The notes beneath the pieces were generated by a model. That model saw only the letters and a list, made by a program, of their open reading frames with translations. It was not told the DNA's origin and made no database searches. From Ancylobacter aquaticus (lineage in GTDB: Bacteria > Pseudomonadota > Alphaproteobacteria > Rhizobiales > Xanthobacteraceae), in NCBI RefSeq assembly GCF_004339465.1, contig NZ_SMFY01000002.1, positions 1,178,001-1,242,000 of the forward strand: a stretch of 64,000 nt of DNA, written 5' to 3'. Positions 9,679 to 49,727 of the stretch are shown here, piece by piece (positions within the stretch are counted from its first letter, which is position 1; every line of letters starts with the position of its first letter). The translations under genes were made by a program, and so were the position numbers.

Positions 9679-9777
9679 CGTCATCCCGGCCGCAGGCGAA
9701 GCCGGAAAGCCGGGATCGCTCGACGATGATTGTGAACGCGATCCCGGATATGGCCCAGCGGCCGTTCCGGGATGACG
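9679..9777 (-). repeat. Dispersed palindrome family A, copy between modA and modB
   Basis: Begins CGTCATCCCGGCC and ends GGCCGTTCCGGGATGACG, with inner arms CCGGGATCGC and GCGATCCCGG. Other copies lie at 34162-34275, 35695-35790, 44268-44353 and (half) 49690-49727. The strand is arbitrary. Confidence 0.85.
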
Positions 9778-25335: not shown

Positions 25336-25353
25336 GGGCAGCGCTCGGCGTTA

Positions 25354-25456
25354 GCATCCTTCGAGGCCCGGGCCGTGCCCGGGCACCTCAGGATGACGGA
25401 GTTCTTGAAGAGCAACGTCATCCTCAAGTGCGCGCGCAGCGAGCCTCGAAGGATGC
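25354..25456 (-). repeat. Dispersed palindrome family C between cobM and cobB
   Basis: Outer arms GCATCCTTCGAGGC (25354-25367) and GCCTCGAAGGATGC (25443-25456) are perfect complements. Inner arms are CCTCAGGATGACG and CGTCATCCTCAAG. This sequence type is widespread between genes in Rhizobiales. Confidence 0.85.
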
Positions 25457-25471
25457 CCGGTAGGTGCCCCC

Positions 25472-28674: not shown

Positions 28675-28710
28675 CCGTCCGGTCCTCGCCAGCCCCGCCC
28701 GCCCGCTCGC

Positions 28711-28799
28711 CGTCATTCCCGGGTTCGACCCAGGGCGCCACGACTTTGGCGGCGGAAGGGCCAACGGCGCAGAAGACCGGGCCAAGCCCGGACCTGACG
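28711..28799 (-). repeat. Dispersed palindrome family B between cobK and cobJ
   Basis: CGTCATTCCCGGGTTCGACC at the left and GACCGGGCCAAGCCCGGAC at the right are family B ends. Other copies are at 35020-35106 (inside cobN) and 38851-39004. Lying between convergent genes, it may act as a bidirectional 3' end. Confidence 0.75.
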
Positions 28800-28829
28800 C
28801 GGCATTAGCGGGCGCACACCCACCCGGCA

Positions 28830-30957: not shown

Positions 30958-32166
30958 TCAGGCCAGATCCTTCTGCATCAGCGCGTGCACGTGGCGCGCG
31001 AGTCCGTCGAACGGCAGCACCGCCCGTGGAACATCGCGCGGCGTGCCTTCGACCACGAGACCCGCCCCCTCGTCCAGCCCCACAATGGTCAGCGCTGCCT
31101 TTGAGGGGTGCGCGCAGCCTTTTGAACAGCCGGAAACGTGGAGATCGCGCCCATCCAGCAGCGGCGCCAGTTCCGCGGCCAGCTCATGCGTCGCAATCCG
31201 CCCCGAGCCGCAGGCGGGCCGCCCGGCGCAGGCATAGACGCGCCGGCGCGGGTCTGTGGCGTCGGTGAGGAAACCGAGCCCGGCTGCCACCTCCCGCAGC
31301 CCCCGCGCCGCCTCGGTGGTGAGCCCGACCAGCAGCAGCGCCCGGCCGGCGGCGGGTTCGGCGTGGCGCACCCCGGCCTGCGCCGCCGCCTCTGCCAAAG
31401 CCGCCAGCGCCTTCGCCTCGACCTGCCCGAAGGCAAGGCCGACGCCCAAGGCAAAGCGGCCATCGCCCAGCGCATGCCGCCCCACCGGGTCGATGCCTTC
31501 ATCCGGCGTGGCGGCGGGCGGGGCAAGGCCGAAGACGGTGCGAAGATTCTCGATTTCTTCCCCGGCCACCAGTTCCGCCATCCGCGCCGAGGTGCCTCGC
31601 GCGGCGAGTTGCTCCAGCAGCGCGATCACCAGTTCCGCCGCCCGCGCCGGTTCCACCTCTCCCAGCGGCACGCCCGCCAGCGCGACCGAATGCCACCCGG
31701 CACCGGCACTCACCGCGATATCCGCCTTCAGCCCGCCGAGCCGGAAGAGCCCCCCGCCATCCACAACCACGGATGCTTTCGGCGCGAGGCGCGGCACGAG
31801 GTGGGCGGCACCATCAGAGATCGCCCGCGCCAGCGGACGCGGGTCAACACGGCCCATCGGGTCGAGCCCGGCCAGCGCGCTCACCTCCACCGGAAACCCC
31901 TGCGGCACCTCGATGCCGAGCGCCGCCACCGCCTCAGGAAGGCCCGGCACTGTCTCCGCCCGCAGCCCGCGCAATTGCAGCTTGCCGCGCGCCGTCACCT
32001 CGATGATTCCATTGCCGAGTTCGGCGGCGAGCCGCGCCAGCCCGGCGAGTTGGTCGAGGTTCAGCGGCGCCAGAGGCTGAAGCCGCGCCAGCAACCCGTC
32101 GCCGGTTTGCATCGGTTCGGGAAGGCTCGGGCAGGCGCCGCGCCTCGGGGTCTCGACAGCACTCAT
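30958..32166 (-). CDS. cobG: Precorrin-3B synthase (oxygen-dependent)
   Basis: Monooxygenase of the aerobic pathway; it uses O2 and an Fe-S centre to make precorrin-3B. The 402-residue protein belongs to the nitrite/sulfite reductase family. The cluster ligands are visible as CAGRPAC (near residue 315) and GCSKGCAHPSKAA (near 345). Many alphaproteobacteria use CobZ instead, so CobG marks the classical aerobic route. The ATG overlaps the cobN stop (ATGA). Confidence 0.94.
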   Translation of the reverse strand: MSAVETPRRGACPSLPEPMQTGDGLLARLQPLAPLNLDQLAGLARLAAELGNGIIEVTARGKLQLRGLRAETVPGLPEAVAALGIEVPQGFPVEVSALAGLDPMGRVDPRPLARAISDGAAHLVPRLAPKASVVVDGGGLFRLGGLKADIAVSAGAGWHSVALAGVPLGEVEPARAAELVIALLEQLAARGTSARMAELVAGEEIENLRTVFGLAPPAATPDEGIDPVGRHALGDGRFALGVGLAFGQVEAKALAALAEAAAQAGVRHAEPAAGRALLLVGLTTEAARGLREVAAGLGFLTDATDPRRRVYACAGRPACGSGRIATHELAAELAPLLDGRDLHVSGCSKGCAHPSKAALTIVGLDEGAGLVVEGTPRDVPRAVLPFDGLARHVHALMQKDLA

Positions 32167-35100
32167 TCCGCCGCCTCCCCTGCGAGGTGGGCGAGATCGG
32201 CCGCGACATCGTTGCGGCGCGGGTGCCAGAGCCCGTTTTCCCGCGCGCCCTTGAGCCGGCCGGCGACGAACTGCGCCGCCTCGGGCGAGGCTTCGATAAG
32301 GAAATCACGCATCTGAACATCGCCGACATAGGCGGCATGAAGCGCGTCGATCAGATGGCCTGGCACGGCGCGGGTCGCCTGCGCAAAGCCGATCAGCCGG
32401 TCCACAGTCTCGGCGATTTCCGCTGCCCCGCGCGGCCCGTGGCGCTTGAGCCCGTCAATATAGCGCGGGCTGGTGCGGCCCCTCACAAGGCGGGCGAGCG
32501 CCGTCTCCAGCGGCCGCGCCACCGGCCGGGCGGGGTCGGAAGTGTCGAGCACCACGATATCCGGCGTACGGCCCAGCATTTCCGCCGCCGCCGCGAAGCC
32601 GCCGAGGAAAGCGAGGTCGGCATCGCCCTCCAGCAGGTCGCGGCCGGGATCGTCGGCGCCATGGACCAGCAAATCCGCCGTCGCCACCCGGGCCGCGAAC
32701 CCCTCCGCCTGCCGCGCAATGCCCTCCGGGCCGCCATAGGCGTGCGAGGCACTGGCGAGATAGGCGGCGCCCAGCGCCTCCCGCTCGATGCCGCCCTTGG
32801 CCCTCTCCAGCCCGGCCCCATAGGCCCCGGGCGCCGTGCCGAAGATGCGGGCCGCGCCCTCGCCCGCCGCCCGCAGCGGGTTCTCGTCCTCGGTTTCCTC
32901 GCGCCGCGCCACCGCGCGCAAAGCGGCGTCAATGAGCGCGATCTGCGCCGGAAACAGGTCGCGGAACAGCCCCGAAATGCGGAACGTGACATCGACGCGC
33001 GGACGCCCCAGCGCGGCCGGCGGCAGCACCTCGATGCCGGTGACGCGGCCCGAACCGGGGTCCCACACCGGCCGCGCGCCGATCAGCGCCAGCCCCTGCG
33101 CGATTTCCTCGCCGCCGGTGCGCAGCGTGGCGCTGCCCCAGAGATCGAGCACCAGCGCGCGCGGCCAGTCGCCATGTGCTTGCGCATAGGCGCGCAGCAC
33201 TTCCTCCGCCGCCAGCCGGCCGAGGTCCATGGCGGTGGGGGTCGGCAGGGCGCGGGGGTCGCTGGTGAAGAGGTTGCGCCCGGTCGGCACCACGTCCGTG
33301 CGCCCGCGCCCCGGCGCGCCGGCAGGCCCGGCGGCCACGCGCCGCCCGTCCAGTGCCGCCAGCAGCCCGTCGCGCTCGGCCTCCCCGCAGGCGCCCCGGC
33401 CATAGACATGGAAACCGTCCTTAAGCCGCATCTCCTTGATGTCGCAAAGAAAGGCGTCGATCTGCTTGAGCGCCTCGTCGGCATCCGCCCCGGCGTCGAG
33501 CCCGGCATCGCGGGCGAGCCCGGTGCGGGTCGCCTCCTCGACGATCAACCGGGCAAGGCGCTCGCGGCGGCGGCGGTCGAGCCCGTCGGCCTGCGCATAC
33601 TCGTCCACCAGACGCTCCAGCGCGCCCAGTTCATCGGCAAGCCCGGCCTCGACGGTCGGGGGCGGGAGATGACCAAGCGTCACCGCTGCGATCCGCCGCT
33701 TCGCCTGCGCCGCCTCGCCGGGATTGGAGACGATGAAGGGATAAGCCACCGGCAGGGCGCCGAGCACAAGCTCGGGGAAGCAGCCACGGGTGAGCGCCAC
33801 ATGCTTGCCCGGCAGCCATTCCAGCGTGCCGTGCGCGCCCATATGGACCAGAGAATCCGCTCCACCTTGCAGCCACAGGCCGAAGGCCAGCAGCCCATGA
33901 CGCGGCGGAAGCGCGGGGTCGTGATACTGCGCCCGCCGCTCGGCAACCGAACCACGCTCCGGCGCCAGCGCCACGGCAACATTGCCGAAGCGGGCGGCGC
34001 GGAAACGGAAGGCGCCGTCGATCACATCCGGGTCGTCCTCCGCCGGGCCCCACGCCGCCTCAACCGCCGCCACCGCCTCGGGCGGAAGGGCGGAGAGGTG
34101 CGCGCGGTAGGCGGCGAGGGCGAGAGAAGCAGGCGCTGCGCCATGGCCGGCCTCAAAATATGTCATTCCGGCCGAAGGCGAAGCCGCAGAGCCGGGATCG
34201 TGCGCAAGGCCAGGATCGCCTGACGCCTCGGCGCTGGCCGCGATCCCGGAGCGGCCGCTGGCCGTCCGGGATGACGGTGGCGTCCGATTCCCGCCCTGCA
34301 CCACCTCCACCAGCCCCCGCGCATCCGCTGGTATCCCCTCCACCCGGTAGCCGGCCGCGCTCAAATCCTCCAGTAGCGCGAGAACGCTCGCCGGCACGTC
34401 GAGCCCTACCGCCCAGCCGGTGCGGCCGGGGGCACCGGCATAATCGGGCATCAGCACGGTGAGGCGCCGCTGCGCGCGCGGCAGGCGTTGCAGCCGCGCC
34501 AGCGCAGCGACCCGGTTGGCGATCTGCTCCACCCGGTCCAGCTCGGGCCGGTTCGCCAGCGCCGCGAAGCCCGGCACGGCGGGTGTTTCCTCCGGCGCCT
34601 TGAAAGAGAGCGCGCCGGCCATTACCCGCCCATCCAGTTCCGGCAGCACCACATGCATGGCGAGGTCGGCGCTGGTGAGCCCACGCGCGCCCTCCGCCCA
34701 TGCCTCGCGCCTTGTCGTGGCGACCACCGCCTGCAGCACCGGCACGTCAGGCCCGTCGAGCACGGTCGCCTCCCCGGGATCGGCGGCAGCGAAGGCGGTG
34801 AGGGTGAGGATGACGGCCGGCTCCATGCCTGCCAGCGCCCCTTTCAGGAAGGCGATGGAGCTCGGCTCCTTGAGGCTGGCGACGAAGATCGGCCGGGGGT
34901 CGAGCCCCCGCGCGACCAGCGCGGCGCACAGTGCGTCGACCGGCGCCGTATCGCCCGCCAGCGCCATGGAGCGGTAGAAGATAAGGGGGATGGCGGGACG
35001 GGCCCGCTCAGCGCCCCCCTCGTCCCCGGGCTTGACCCGGGGCCCCAGTTTTTCCGCGAGGACCGGTCGGGACGGCTGGGTGGCCGGGTCAAGCCCGGTC

Positions 35101-35672
35101 GTGAGGAGGGAAGCACCGCCCCCTTCATAAAATCCCGCCAGCGGCAACGCTGCGGGCGGAGCGGCATCCATCTCCCGGCCTGCATGTCCGGCGAGAACCC
35201 GCAGCAGCGCGCCCATATTCGCCGGCCCGCCGGCCCGGAAATAACCTAGCAGCGCCGCCAACTCGGCCGCTTCCAGGGTCGAGGCCTCGGCAAGGCGAGG
35301 GTCGTCGCGGTCCTCGCCCGGCAGCACCGCGAGCGCGAAGCCGCGCGCCCGCGCCTCGGCCGCCAGCCGGTCGACGCCATAGCGCCACCAGTCGAGCCCG
35401 CCGAGCAGCCGCACCACCACGATGCGGGCTCGGGACCCCACCTTGTCGACCCACAGATCGACCGACATCGGGTGCCGGAGGTCGCGCAGATTGGCCAGCC
35501 GCAGGCTCGGCAGCCCGGCCCCTCCCTGCGGCGCCTGCGCCATCGCGGCGGCGAGCGCGCCGAGGTCGCTGTCGGCGAAGGACACCACCACCATCTCGCC
35601 CGGCGTCTGGCCGAGATCGACCGGCTCGACCAGATCGTCGAGGCTGGAGGAGGTGGTGGTGAGGATATGCAT
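32163..35672 (-). CDS. cobN: Cobaltochelatase large subunit CobN
   Basis: Large subunit of the ATP-dependent cobaltochelatase, working with CobS and CobT (not in this window). The 1169 residues include VHMGAHGTLEWLPGKHVALTR (near 610, with the conserved HG), PYPFI-type sequence AYPFIVSNPGEAAQAKRR and GCFPELVLGALP. Two stretches are not CobN sequence. Residues about 189-220 are a translated family B palindrome, and residues about 466-504 a translated family A palindrome. Both lie in variable linkers, keep the frame and contain no stop codon. The gene is therefore probably functional but carries two insertions. Confidence 0.95.
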   Translation of the reverse strand: MHILTTTSSSLDDLVEPVDLGQTPGEMVVVSFADSDLGALAAAMAQAPQGGAGLPSLRLANLRDLRHPMSVDLWVDKVGSRARIVVVRLLGGLDWWRYGVDRLAAEARARGFALAVLPGEDRDDPRLAEASTLEAAELAALLGYFRAGGPANMGALLRVLAGHAGREMDAAPPAALPLAGFYEGGGASLLTTGLDPATQPSRPVLAEKLGPRVKPGDEGGAERARPAIPLIFYRSMALAGDTAPVDALCAALVARGLDPRPIFVASLKEPSSIAFLKGALAGMEPAVILTLTAFAAADPGEATVLDGPDVPVLQAVVATTRREAWAEGARGLTSADLAMHVVLPELDGRVMAGALSFKAPEETPAVPGFAALANRPELDRVEQIANRVAALARLQRLPRAQRRLTVLMPDYAGAPGRTGWAVGLDVPASVLALLEDLSAAGYRVEGIPADARGLVEVVQGGNRTPPSSRTASGRSGIAASAEASGDPGLAHDPGSAASPSAGMTYFEAGHGAAPASLALAAYRAHLSALPPEAVAAVEAAWGPAEDDPDVIDGAFRFRAARFGNVAVALAPERGSVAERRAQYHDPALPPRHGLLAFGLWLQGGADSLVHMGAHGTLEWLPGKHVALTRGCFPELVLGALPVAYPFIVSNPGEAAQAKRRIAAVTLGHLPPPTVEAGLADELGALERLVDEYAQADGLDRRRRERLARLIVEEATRTGLARDAGLDAGADADEALKQIDAFLCDIKEMRLKDGFHVYGRGACGEAERDGLLAALDGRRVAAGPAGAPGRGRTDVVPTGRNLFTSDPRALPTPTAMDLGRLAAEEVLRAYAQAHGDWPRALVLDLWGSATLRTGGEEIAQGLALIGARPVWDPGSGRVTGIEVLPPAALGRPRVDVTFRISGLFRDLFPAQIALIDAALRAVARREETEDENPLRAAGEGAARIFGTAPGAYGAGLERAKGGIEREALGAAYLASASHAYGGPEGIARQAEGFAARVATADLLVHGADDPGRDLLEGDADLAFLGGFAAAAEMLGRTPDIVVLDTSDPARPVARPLETALARLVRGRTSPRYIDGLKRHGPRGAAEIAETVDRLIGFAQATRAVPGHLIDALHAAYVGDVQMRDFLIEASPEAAQFVAGRLKGARENGLWHPRRNDVAADLAHLAGEAAE
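34162..34275 (-). repeat. Family A palindrome inside cobN, in frame
   Basis: Ends GTCATTCCGGCC and GGCCGTCCGGGATGAC, with inner arms GCCGGGATCG and CGATCCCGG, as in the intergenic copies. It encodes about 38 residues rich in Ser, Ala and Gly in cobN. Confidence 0.85.
35020..35106 (-). repeat. Family B palindrome inside cobN, in frame
   Basis: CGTCCCCGGGCTTGACCCGG at the left and GGCCGGGTCAAGCCCGGTC at the right match the family B copies at 28711-28799 and 38922-39004. On the cobN strand it encodes LGPRVKPGDEGG and adjacent residues. Confidence 0.85.
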
Positions 35673-35694: not shown

Positions 35695-35790
35695 CGTCAT
35701 CCCGGCCGAAGCGCAGCGCAGAGCCGGGATCGGTTGCCGTTCATGCCGGCTGGCGATCCCGGATCGGCCTCGCGGCCGTCCGGGATGACG
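35695..35790 (-). repeat. Family A palindrome between cobW and cobN
   Basis: Starts CGTCATCCCGGCCGAAGC and ends CGGCCGTCCGGGATGACG with inner GCCGGGATCGG/GCGATCCCGG arms. It fills most of the gap between cobW and cobN and lies 1.4 kb from the copy inside cobN. Confidence 0.85.
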
Positions 35791-38838: not shown

Positions 38839-38850
38839 GCGCCGGCACGC

Positions 38851-39004
38851 CGTCATCCCCGGGCTCGACCCGGGGATCCACGACTTTCCGGAATCTCCCA
38901 CGCGCCTTCCCATTTACCATCGTCATCCCCGGGCTTGACCCGGGGATCCGCGCCGTCTTCGCGCCGATCAAAGGCGTGGATGGCCGGGCCAAGCCCGGCC
39001 ATGA
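38851..39004 (+). repeat. Family B palindromes upstream of cobQ (one truncated, one full)
   Basis: A truncated copy (38851-38882, GTCATCCCCGGGCTCGACCC) is followed by a full one (38922-39004). The full copy runs from CGTCATCCCCGGGCTTGACC to GGCCGGGCCAAGCCCGGCC and ATGAC. The shared left end suggests a partial duplication. The full copy ends 30 bases before cobQ. Confidence 0.8.
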
Positions 39005-39034
39005 CCGCTGTGATGGGTCGTCAGGGAGGAGCCT

Positions 39035-44194: not shown

Positions 44195-44217
44195 CCCTCT
44201 CCCCGACGGGGAGAGGG
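44195..44217. repeat. CCCTCTCCCC/GGGGAGAGGG hairpin
   Basis: A 10-bp perfect stem with GAC loop, followed by CTGGGGTGAGGGG, a very common dispersed bacterial repeat. It lies 40 bases after the MxaD-like stop and may act as its transcript end. Confidence 0.75.
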
Positions 44218-44267
44218 CTGGGGTGAGGGGACCTGGCGCCCCGCAGGGCCTTCCCTCCCGCCCGGCA

Positions 44268-44353
44268 TCATCCCGGCCGCGCACCAGCGTGCGCCAGGAT
44301 CGCCCGAGGCCTCAACGCGATTCCGGATCGACCTTCGGTCGTCCGGGGTGACG
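44268..44353 (+). repeat. Family A palindrome overlapping the beta-propeller start
   Basis: CATCATCCCGGCC at the left, inner GGATCGCC and GCGATTCCGGATCG, and CGGTCGTCCGGGGTGACGGCC at the right. The final GTGAC lies at 44348-44352; its GTG is the best start codon of the downstream gene. The copy is diverged from the others. Confidence 0.7.
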
Positions 44354-49600: not shown

Positions 49601-49689
49601 TTGGCGGGTCCGGTTGGCGTGGTGGCGCGCCCTCGCCGGCCGTCCTACCGGCCGCACACGGCGAGAGTCGCGATTGCCCCCTCGTGCGA

Positions 49690-49727
49690 GCGATCCCGGA
49701 TCGGCCGTTCGGCCGTCCGGGATGACG
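49690..49727. repeat. Half copy of palindrome family A
   Basis: GCGATCCCGGATCGGCCG and CGGCCGTCCGGGATGACG form only the right half of the element, between the ctrA terminator and the DUF305 stop. Confidence 0.75.

What the first reader, a model, noticed from the sequence alone, without database searches (positions are those of the whole stretch)
34162..35106. Two unrelated genome palindromes inserted in frame in cobN
The cobN coding region contains a family A palindrome (34162-34275) and a family B palindrome (35020-35106). Both are recognisable because intact copies lie between genes at 9679, 35695, 28711 and 38922. Both keep the frame, have no stop on the coding strand, and add about 38 and 30 residues in linkers (residues about 466-504 and 189-220). 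Conserved CobN sequence continues on each side. In-frame, translated palindromes are known as Rickettsia palindromic elements; I know of no description in this group. Two families in one gene suggest the elements tend to keep an open frame, and that they may create new protein segments.
Basis: partly seen in the sequence, partly recalled or inferred. Interest (0 to 1): 0.8.

Follow-up and report, generated by a model that had tools for sequence, protein, structure and literature searches.

The report
Repeat DNA hops into protein linkers
In one genus of bacteria, short mirror-image DNA repeats have landed again and again, in reading frame, in the same two flexible links of a vitamin B12 enzyme, with different repeat families in different species, so mobile repeats keep adding and removing stretches of a protein that appears to stay intact.

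Summary
In detail: cobN (window 32163-35672, minus strand) carries a family A and a family B palindrome in frame, and both families are dispersed in the genome. Comparison of 30 genomes of the genus (Ancylobacter) shows more. The same two linkers hold four distinct palindrome families (A, B, C, D) in different species, or are empty: 19 of 28 filled at site 1, 16 of 26 at site 2. Parsimony needs at least 10 and 11 changes over 1000 bootstrap trees. The frame is unbroken in 29 of 30; the exception is an assembly gap. Linkers of a GlcE-like protein, LarC and DNA polymerase I are used too. Most likely these are nonautonomous REP-type elements, kept only where frame and linker tolerate them. Inserts evolve nearly freely (dN/dS 0.68 against 0.19 for the rest) and the palindromes are not unusually open (A equals shuffles, B is below), so a bias to open frames is not supported and useful new segments are not shown. 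Intragenic REPs are already described (Di Nocera 2013); family B fits its CGTC REPs. No Y1 transposase was found in 30 of 30 genomes; the mover is unknown.

The parts
32163..35672 (-). cobN, 1169 codons, intact
   Evidence: dN/dS 0.13-0.26 outside the two sites in nine genus pairs
34161..34277 (.). family A palindrome dimer inside cobN (site 2, residues about 466-504)
   Evidence: BLAST to copies at 35695 and 9679; R1 72.5 bits (copy was in the model); fold z -2.0; segment absent or different in other species
35017..35107 (.). family B palindrome dimer inside cobN (site 1, residues about 189-219)
   Evidence: R2 81.5 bits (copy was in the model); fold z -3.5; segment absent or different in other species
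9679..9777 (+). family A copy outside cobN
35695..35790 (+). family A copy just upstream of cobN
44266..44353 (+). family A copy
   Evidence: E 6.1e-9
49641..49727 (+). family A, one half well kept
28710..28800 (+). family B copy
   Evidence: E 3.6e-11 (copy was in the model), E 3.6e-4
38850..38893 (+). family B single half
38920..39007 (+). family B dimer
44195..44230 (.). family C half element (in this genome not in cobN)
25353..25459 (-). family D element, two halves (in this genome not in cobN)

Best explanation
Families A-D are nonautonomous, dispersed palindromic elements of the REP kind (B fits the CGTC-tagged REP head-to-head dimers; A and D carry the same tag; C does not). They insert at many places; insertions in genes are purged unless the length is a multiple of three, the frame read has no stop, and the position is a loose linker. 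In Ancylobacter the two cobN linkers (also linkers in a GlcE-like protein, LarC and DNA polymerase I) are such positions, so over the genus they are filled, emptied and refilled by different families. The elements are translated as unstructured spacer and the enzyme keeps working. Shown: dispersed repeats, in-frame position, presence/absence and family differences between species, weak pooled constraint on the inserts, purifying selection on the rest of cobN. Inferred: survival of tolerated insertions as the cause, translation of the peptides, intact enzyme activity. Unknown: what moves the elements.
For: All four families have further copies in this genome (C mostly as halves). The cobN linkers hold B, C or D (site 1) and A, B, C or D (site 2) in different species; 19 of 28 and 16 of 26 species are filled. 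Fewest changes on a CobN tree built without those segments: 11 and 12, at least 10 and 11 in 1000 bootstrap trees. Close relatives differ, e.g. G005 empty/empty against G017 C/C, G015 A against G014 and G019 B at site 2. Only these two places vary by more than 20 residues among 29 CobN (ranges 114 and 98; others 17 or less). B is read in three frames and C in at least two at these sites (by eye). Inserts pooled dN/dS 0.68, rest of cobN 0.19. Both inserts fall in stretches of pLDDT below 50 without secondary structure (185-222, 462-512). Other genes: GlcE-like, larC, polA.
Against: No mover: Y1_Tnp PF01797 has hits in 0 of 30 genus genomes. No target-site duplication was established, and some filled sites hold extra DNA beyond the element (by eye). 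Some insert pairs look constrained: dN/dS 0.16 and 0.24 in two of 11 cobN pairs and 0.36 for the one GlcE-like pair. The structure model is of medium quality (mean pLDDT 66, pTM 0.50) with other low-confidence stretches. Expression and activity were not tested.
Confidence: 0.8

Rival explanations
1. Targeted landing pads: the elements prefer these DNA sites (for example existing palindromes or hairpins), so turnover reflects site choice, with tolerance as a second filter. (Overlaps with the best explanation; the odds are not exclusive.)
For: Elements stack: B followed by D at site 2 of G021, half C followed by B at site 1 of G011 and G020; different families lie side by side elsewhere in the genome. 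Two of the three Pfam-supported intragenic copies found in this genome are in cobN.
Against: The empty linkers of genus members that were extracted gave no match to the A-D cores, so a resident palindrome is not needed; G016 site 2, with CGTCATGACG, may be an exception. The solved CobN has only short stretches at these places, so tolerance alone can explain them. No shared target motif or duplication was found; none was searched for systematically.
Confidence: 0.15
2. The inserts are useful: they tune length, flexibility or interactions of CobN, and turnover keeps a needed spacer.
For: Filled in 19 of 28 and 16 of 26 species; two cobN insert pairs show low dN/dS (0.16, 0.24) and the GlcE-like pair 0.36.
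Against: Pooled insert dN/dS 0.68 against 0.19 elsewhere in cobN; 9 of 28 and 10 of 26 species do without; peptides of different families and frames occupy the same place.
Confidence: 0.07
3. The inserts are not translated: removed from RNA, or skipped by the ribosome at the hairpin.
For: Both form hairpins more stable than most shuffles.
Against: The cobN frame runs unbroken through the sites in 29 of 30 genus genomes, although copies elsewhere have all three lengths modulo 3 and are open in only about half of the frames. Skipping would not need this.
Confidence: 0.03
4. cobN is decaying and the inserts are debris.
For: None found.
Against: Unbroken frames in 29 of 30 genus genomes, the exception being an assembly gap inside a family D palindrome; dN/dS 0.13-0.26 outside the sites in nine pairs.
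Confidence: 0.01

Closest known systems
CGTC-tagged REPs (Di Nocera, De Gregorio, Rocco 2013, PMC3733652)
   Same: Family B: CGTC/CCTC tag, AT-initiated 9-bp stem, 5-base loop CTTGA, CCA tail, head-to-head dimers of unlike stems, alphaproteobacterial host, no linked transposase. The paper also reports REPs inside genes (DNA polymerase I among them), suggests linkers as tolerated places, and says different REPs in two Xanthomonas recB genes lie at about the same site.
   Different: Here four families occupy the same two linkers across one genus. Families A and D carry the tag but have longer loops; family C has no CGTC tag.
Rickettsia palindromic elements (RPE)
   Same: Palindromes inserted in frame in conserved genes. 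The 2013 paper assigns RPE-4 and RPE-6 to the CGTC REPs.
   Different: Host differs; sequences were not compared here. In the passages read (PMC2229807) RPEs are 105-146 bp; same-site replacement by other families was not mentioned there.
GTAG REPs/REPINs with RAYT transposases
   Same: Short hairpin units, often in inverted pairs, dispersed between genes.
   Different: Different tag; no Y1_Tnp (RAYT family) match in 30 of 30 genus genomes.
MITEs with coding potential (enterobacterial RU/ERIC; PMC2229807 passages, PMC2759123 listing only)
   Same: Small mobile repeats fused in frame to genes.
   Different: A target duplication was not shown here.

Membership tests
CGTC-tagged REP (family B) | CGTC tag or TGTC/CCTC variant at one end | tested here: met
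   alignment of 21 copies, ends CCTCAT / CGTCAT in most; definition from PMC3733652
CGTC-tagged REP (family B) | stem 8-9 bp starting with AT, loop 4-5, tail CCA | tested here: met
   read from the copies and consensus, e.g. ATCCCCGGG-CTTGA-CCCGGGGAT-CCA
CGTC-tagged REP (family B) | mostly head-to-head dimers | tested here: met
   39 of 46 places are at least 75 nt long, dimer length (one search counts 38 plus the cobN copy); the 21 aligned copies are two unlike halves in inverted order; single halves also occur
CGTC-tagged REP (family B) | no association with a tyrosine transposase | tested here: met
   PF01797 in 0 of 30 genomes; 5 of 14 control genomes ring
CGTC-tagged REP (family A) | CGTC tag | tested here: met
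   alignment of 26 copies
CGTC-tagged REP (family A) | loop of 4-5 bases and CCA tail | tested here: not met
   loops of roughly 14-19 bases and CG end (read); the paper allows other loops in a few species. A is CGTC-tagged and REP-like but not filed in the four published families
CGTC-tagged REP (family D) | CGTC tag and loop of 4-5 bases | tested here: not met
   tag present (C[GC]TCATCCTGAGG), loop long (read)
CGTC-tagged REP (family C) | CGTC tag | tested here: not met
   ends CCCTCACCC / GGGTGAGGG
Rickettsia palindromic element | in-frame insertion in conserved genes | tested here: met
Rickettsia palindromic element | sequence homology to an RPE family | not tested
   no RPE sequence was compared
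GTAG REP / RAYT system | RAYT (Y1_Tnp) gene in the genome | tested here: not met
MITE | target-site duplication | tested here: inconclusive
   flanks of filled and empty sites compared by eye only

The most novel reading that the evidence does not exclude
A few protein linkers act as standing landing pads: different palindrome families compete for the same sites, replacing one another by insertion into, or exchange with, the resident palindrome and by near-exact deletion, without any REP transposase. Coding linkers would then be a normal stage in the life of these repeats and a continuing source of new disordered protein segments.
Probability: 0.15. Interest if true: 0.8.

Novelty: new variant of a known kind. 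Interest (0 to 1): 0.6.

Why it matters
How CGTC-type REPs move is unknown; the 2013 survey found no transposase gene associated with them (PMC3733652). Ancylobacter gives filled, part-deleted and empty states of the same site among close species, anchored by conserved coding sequence on both sides, so the gain and loss steps can be read and tested. It also shows that linkers of conserved enzymes can be rewritten many times within a genus by repeats, a route to protein length variation that is easily missed, and that coding palindromes can produce assembly gaps that look like broken genes.

Tried and rejected
Rejected: cobN as a broken gene; a bias of the palindromes to open frames (shuffles); RAYT as mover. 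Led nowhere: codon-score gene calling around the 108 A and B places. A rough caller put 13 of 108 inside and 17 across the end of a called gene, 78 between, but it also called frames antisense to likely genes. Of 106 open frames with at least 30 codons on each side I sent 10 to Pfam: one had a hit (FAD_binding_4, N-terminal to the element; genus orthologs align on both sides of it; the name GlcE-like is mine, from recall), one (lipoamide-dehydrogenase-like) has the element upstream of its likely start, eight had no hit. Elements in genes without a Pfam family, or that break genes, may be missed. The GlcE-like table read 18 of 30 genomes, polA 28 of 30 over two patterns, larC 9 of the 16 genomes with a match; the others did not fit my text patterns. 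The peptide search for further genes used one frame of family B only, and 20 of its many places were fetched. Whole-gene searches for the 30 genus members say nothing about genus members beyond those 30.

Literature searches. By the titles and abstracts listed none treats repeats inside cobN or in Ancylobacter genes; one search returned nothing because its terms were too strict, searches listed only part of their hits, and the library lacks most subscription journals. PMC3733652 read in parts 1-5 of 8 plus passages; PMC12306157 and PMC2229807 passages only; all other papers listings only.

Rows dropped or set by eye: among the places in this genome, reverse-strand duplicates and weak hits (A above E 0.045, B above E 0.009) were left out. 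In the 'automatic' parsimony G026 and G028 (site 1) and G013, G025, G026, G028 (site 2) were left out; three cells whose segment my pattern failed to extract (G013 and G022 at site 1, G012 at site 2) were set empty by eye. With all 30 assigned by eye, 21 and 19 are filled and 11 and 15 changes are needed. G021 site 2 (B and D) was coded D; G011 and G020 site 1 (half C and B) were coded B. Control: with labels shuffled over the tree, the by-eye counts are reached or undercut in 3.2% (site 1) and 15.6% (site 2) of 500 shuffles, so site 2 shows little tree signal.
Full report
WHAT WAS CLAIMED AND WHETHER IT IS THERE. The window is part of a 4.83 Mb genome. cobN is a single open frame of 1169 codons with a strong CobN match. 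I kept 62 places of family A and 46 of family B, lower bounds because of the scoring cap.

THE COMPARISON ACROSS THE GENUS. CobN was matched in 56 of 61 genomes searched, including all 30 genus genomes searched. Among 29 genus members aligned (G013 left out for its assembly gap), only two places vary by more than 20 residues: site 1 (range 114) and site 2 (range 98); all others vary by 17 or less. These are the two places of the finding. At site 1 species carry family B, C or D or nothing; at site 2 family A, B, C or D or nothing. Families A, B and D share the CGTCAT ends; family C reads CCCCTCACCCAACCCTCTCCCC and its mirror. C and D also occur in several copies in the window's own genome, just not in its cobN. 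Of the same-family genomes, G030, G031 and G035 match the query in pieces that leave out both segments, and G032 and G033 leave out site 2 and are some 20-27 residues shorter across site 1; their linkers were not examined further.

TURNOVER. On a CobN tree made from columns that leave the inserts out, close relatives differ: G005 empty at both sites, G017 C at both; G014 and G019 B at site 2, G015 A; G002 C/C, G009 B/empty, G016 empty/empty, G024 B/D, G020 B/C, G027 C/C, G000 B/A. By DNA core matching 19 of 28 species are filled at site 1 and 16 of 26 at site 2 (three empty cells set by eye); the fewest changes are 11 and 12 on the best tree and at least 10 and 11 in 1000 bootstrap trees. This is a gene tree, not a species tree. 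Against shuffled labels (by-eye states) site 1 has slightly fewer changes than chance (3.2% of 500 shuffles as low) and site 2 not clearly (15.6%), so site 2 occupancy hardly follows the tree. Family B is read in three frames (GLDPATQ...RVKPGDE; HGRAWPGHPRL...; IPGLVPGSH...KPGHD) and C in more than one (by eye), so the frame is not fixed by the element. In G016 the empty site 2 holds CGTCATGACG, which looks like a collapsed element; that is an inference. Site 2 of G009 resembles the flanks of family C in its relatives, which suggests a near-exact deletion (by eye).

NOT ONLY COBN. In this genome 10 of 106 candidate open frames were checked with Pfam; besides cobN one gene with an FAD_binding_4 domain carries half of a family B element, and its genus orthologs align on both sides. 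That linker is 32 residues and empty in 11 of 18 genomes read, holds B in G009 and G016, half B in G000, C in G002, G005 and G014 (by eye), and an unclear glycine-rich stretch in G017. A peptide search for one frame of B, with 20 places fetched, led to the His-rich linker of LarC (PF01969 in the five genomes tested; two B copies in G020) and to the linker of DNA polymerase I between PF01367 and PF01612 (G009, G016), with a further full B in G014.

WHAT THE INSERTS DO. Eleven insert comparisons between species sharing a family at a site give a pooled dN/dS of 0.68 (single values 0.16 to 1.48); nine comparisons of the rest of cobN give 0.19 (0.13 to 0.26); the one GlcE-like pair gives 0.36. The segments include some native linker, and the pairs are not all independent. 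The structure model (18 sequences, mean pLDDT 66, pTM 0.50) has no secondary structure and pLDDT below 50 at 185-222 and 462-512, but other stretches are also poor. A solved CobN aligns on both sides of both segments and has only short stretches between (9uk9).

IS THERE A BIAS TO OPEN FRAMES. No. Over six frames A copies are open as often as mononucleotide shuffles (0.585 against 0.575 +- 0.025, 57 copies) and B copies less often (0.469 against 0.605 +- 0.032, 38 copies). Length modulo 3 is mixed: 15, 12 and 30 copies with remainder 0, 1 and 2 for A, and 13, 18 and 7 for B. The frame record in cobN (unbroken in 29 of 30, the exception an assembly gap) is what selection would leave.

MECHANISM. 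The best-supported account is insertion at many places, loss of most insertions in genes, and survival in loose linkers. That most copies lie outside genes rests on a rough gene call (78 of 108 between genes, 17 across an end, 13 inside) and on the ten Pfam tests. What moves the elements is unknown: Y1_Tnp, the REP transposase family, is absent from 30 of 30 genomes, while 5 of 14 control genomes ring. Stacked elements (B then D in G021; half C then B in G011 and G020) leave open that resident palindromes attract others.

WHAT IS KNOWN. Di Nocera and colleagues (PMC3733652; parts 1-5 of 8 read, passages) defined CGTC-tagged REPs, mostly alphaproteobacterial, mostly head-to-head dimers, not associated with transposase genes; they list REPs inside genes, suggest linkers as tolerated places, and note that different REPs in two Xanthomonas recB genes lie at about the same site. 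They place two Rickettsia palindromic element families among CGTC REPs. Family B meets the tests for a CGTC REP; A and D have the tag but longer loops; C has no tag. What seems new is the extent: four families in two linkers of one gene across one genus, and similar linkers in other genes. The searches listed under Tried and rejected showed no paper on this, within their limits.

VERDICT. A real and well-supported case of intragenic palindromes; a new variant of a known kind, with an unusually clear turnover record.

Noticed in passing
L290-L319 (polA loci); linker between PF01367 and PF01612: 13 of 28 genomes read have AGLDPDT, AGLDPET or close forms in the DNA polymerase I linker without a full B element; in six the DNA is exactly GCCGGGCTCGACCCGG, the core of a family B half. 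It may be an old decayed element kept as protein, or chance.
   Followed up: partly
L096 and L095 (cobN site 1 of G004 and G025): A perfect 28-base palindrome, ACCAACATCGGATGCATCCGATGTTGGT, sits inside the family C insert: perhaps a fifth element nested in another.
   Followed up: no
L101 (G013, Ancylobacter dichloromethanicus cobN site 2): The assembly has a run of five N inside a family D palindrome, so the gene looks broken; assembly of coding palindromes can produce false pseudogenes.
   Followed up: partly
L078, cobN site 2 of G016: CGTCATGACG at an empty site looks like two element ends joined after deletion of the middle.
   Followed up: no
G000 C4:141092-141294 and C1:249900-250206: Different palindrome families lie side by side (B, A, C and A, D, A), so elements cluster outside cobN as well.
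   Followed up: no
L276, L277, L278, L283, L284 (larC): The His-rich linker of the nickel insertion protein LarC repeatedly holds family B, twice in G020; part copies in G013 and G016.
   Followed up: partly
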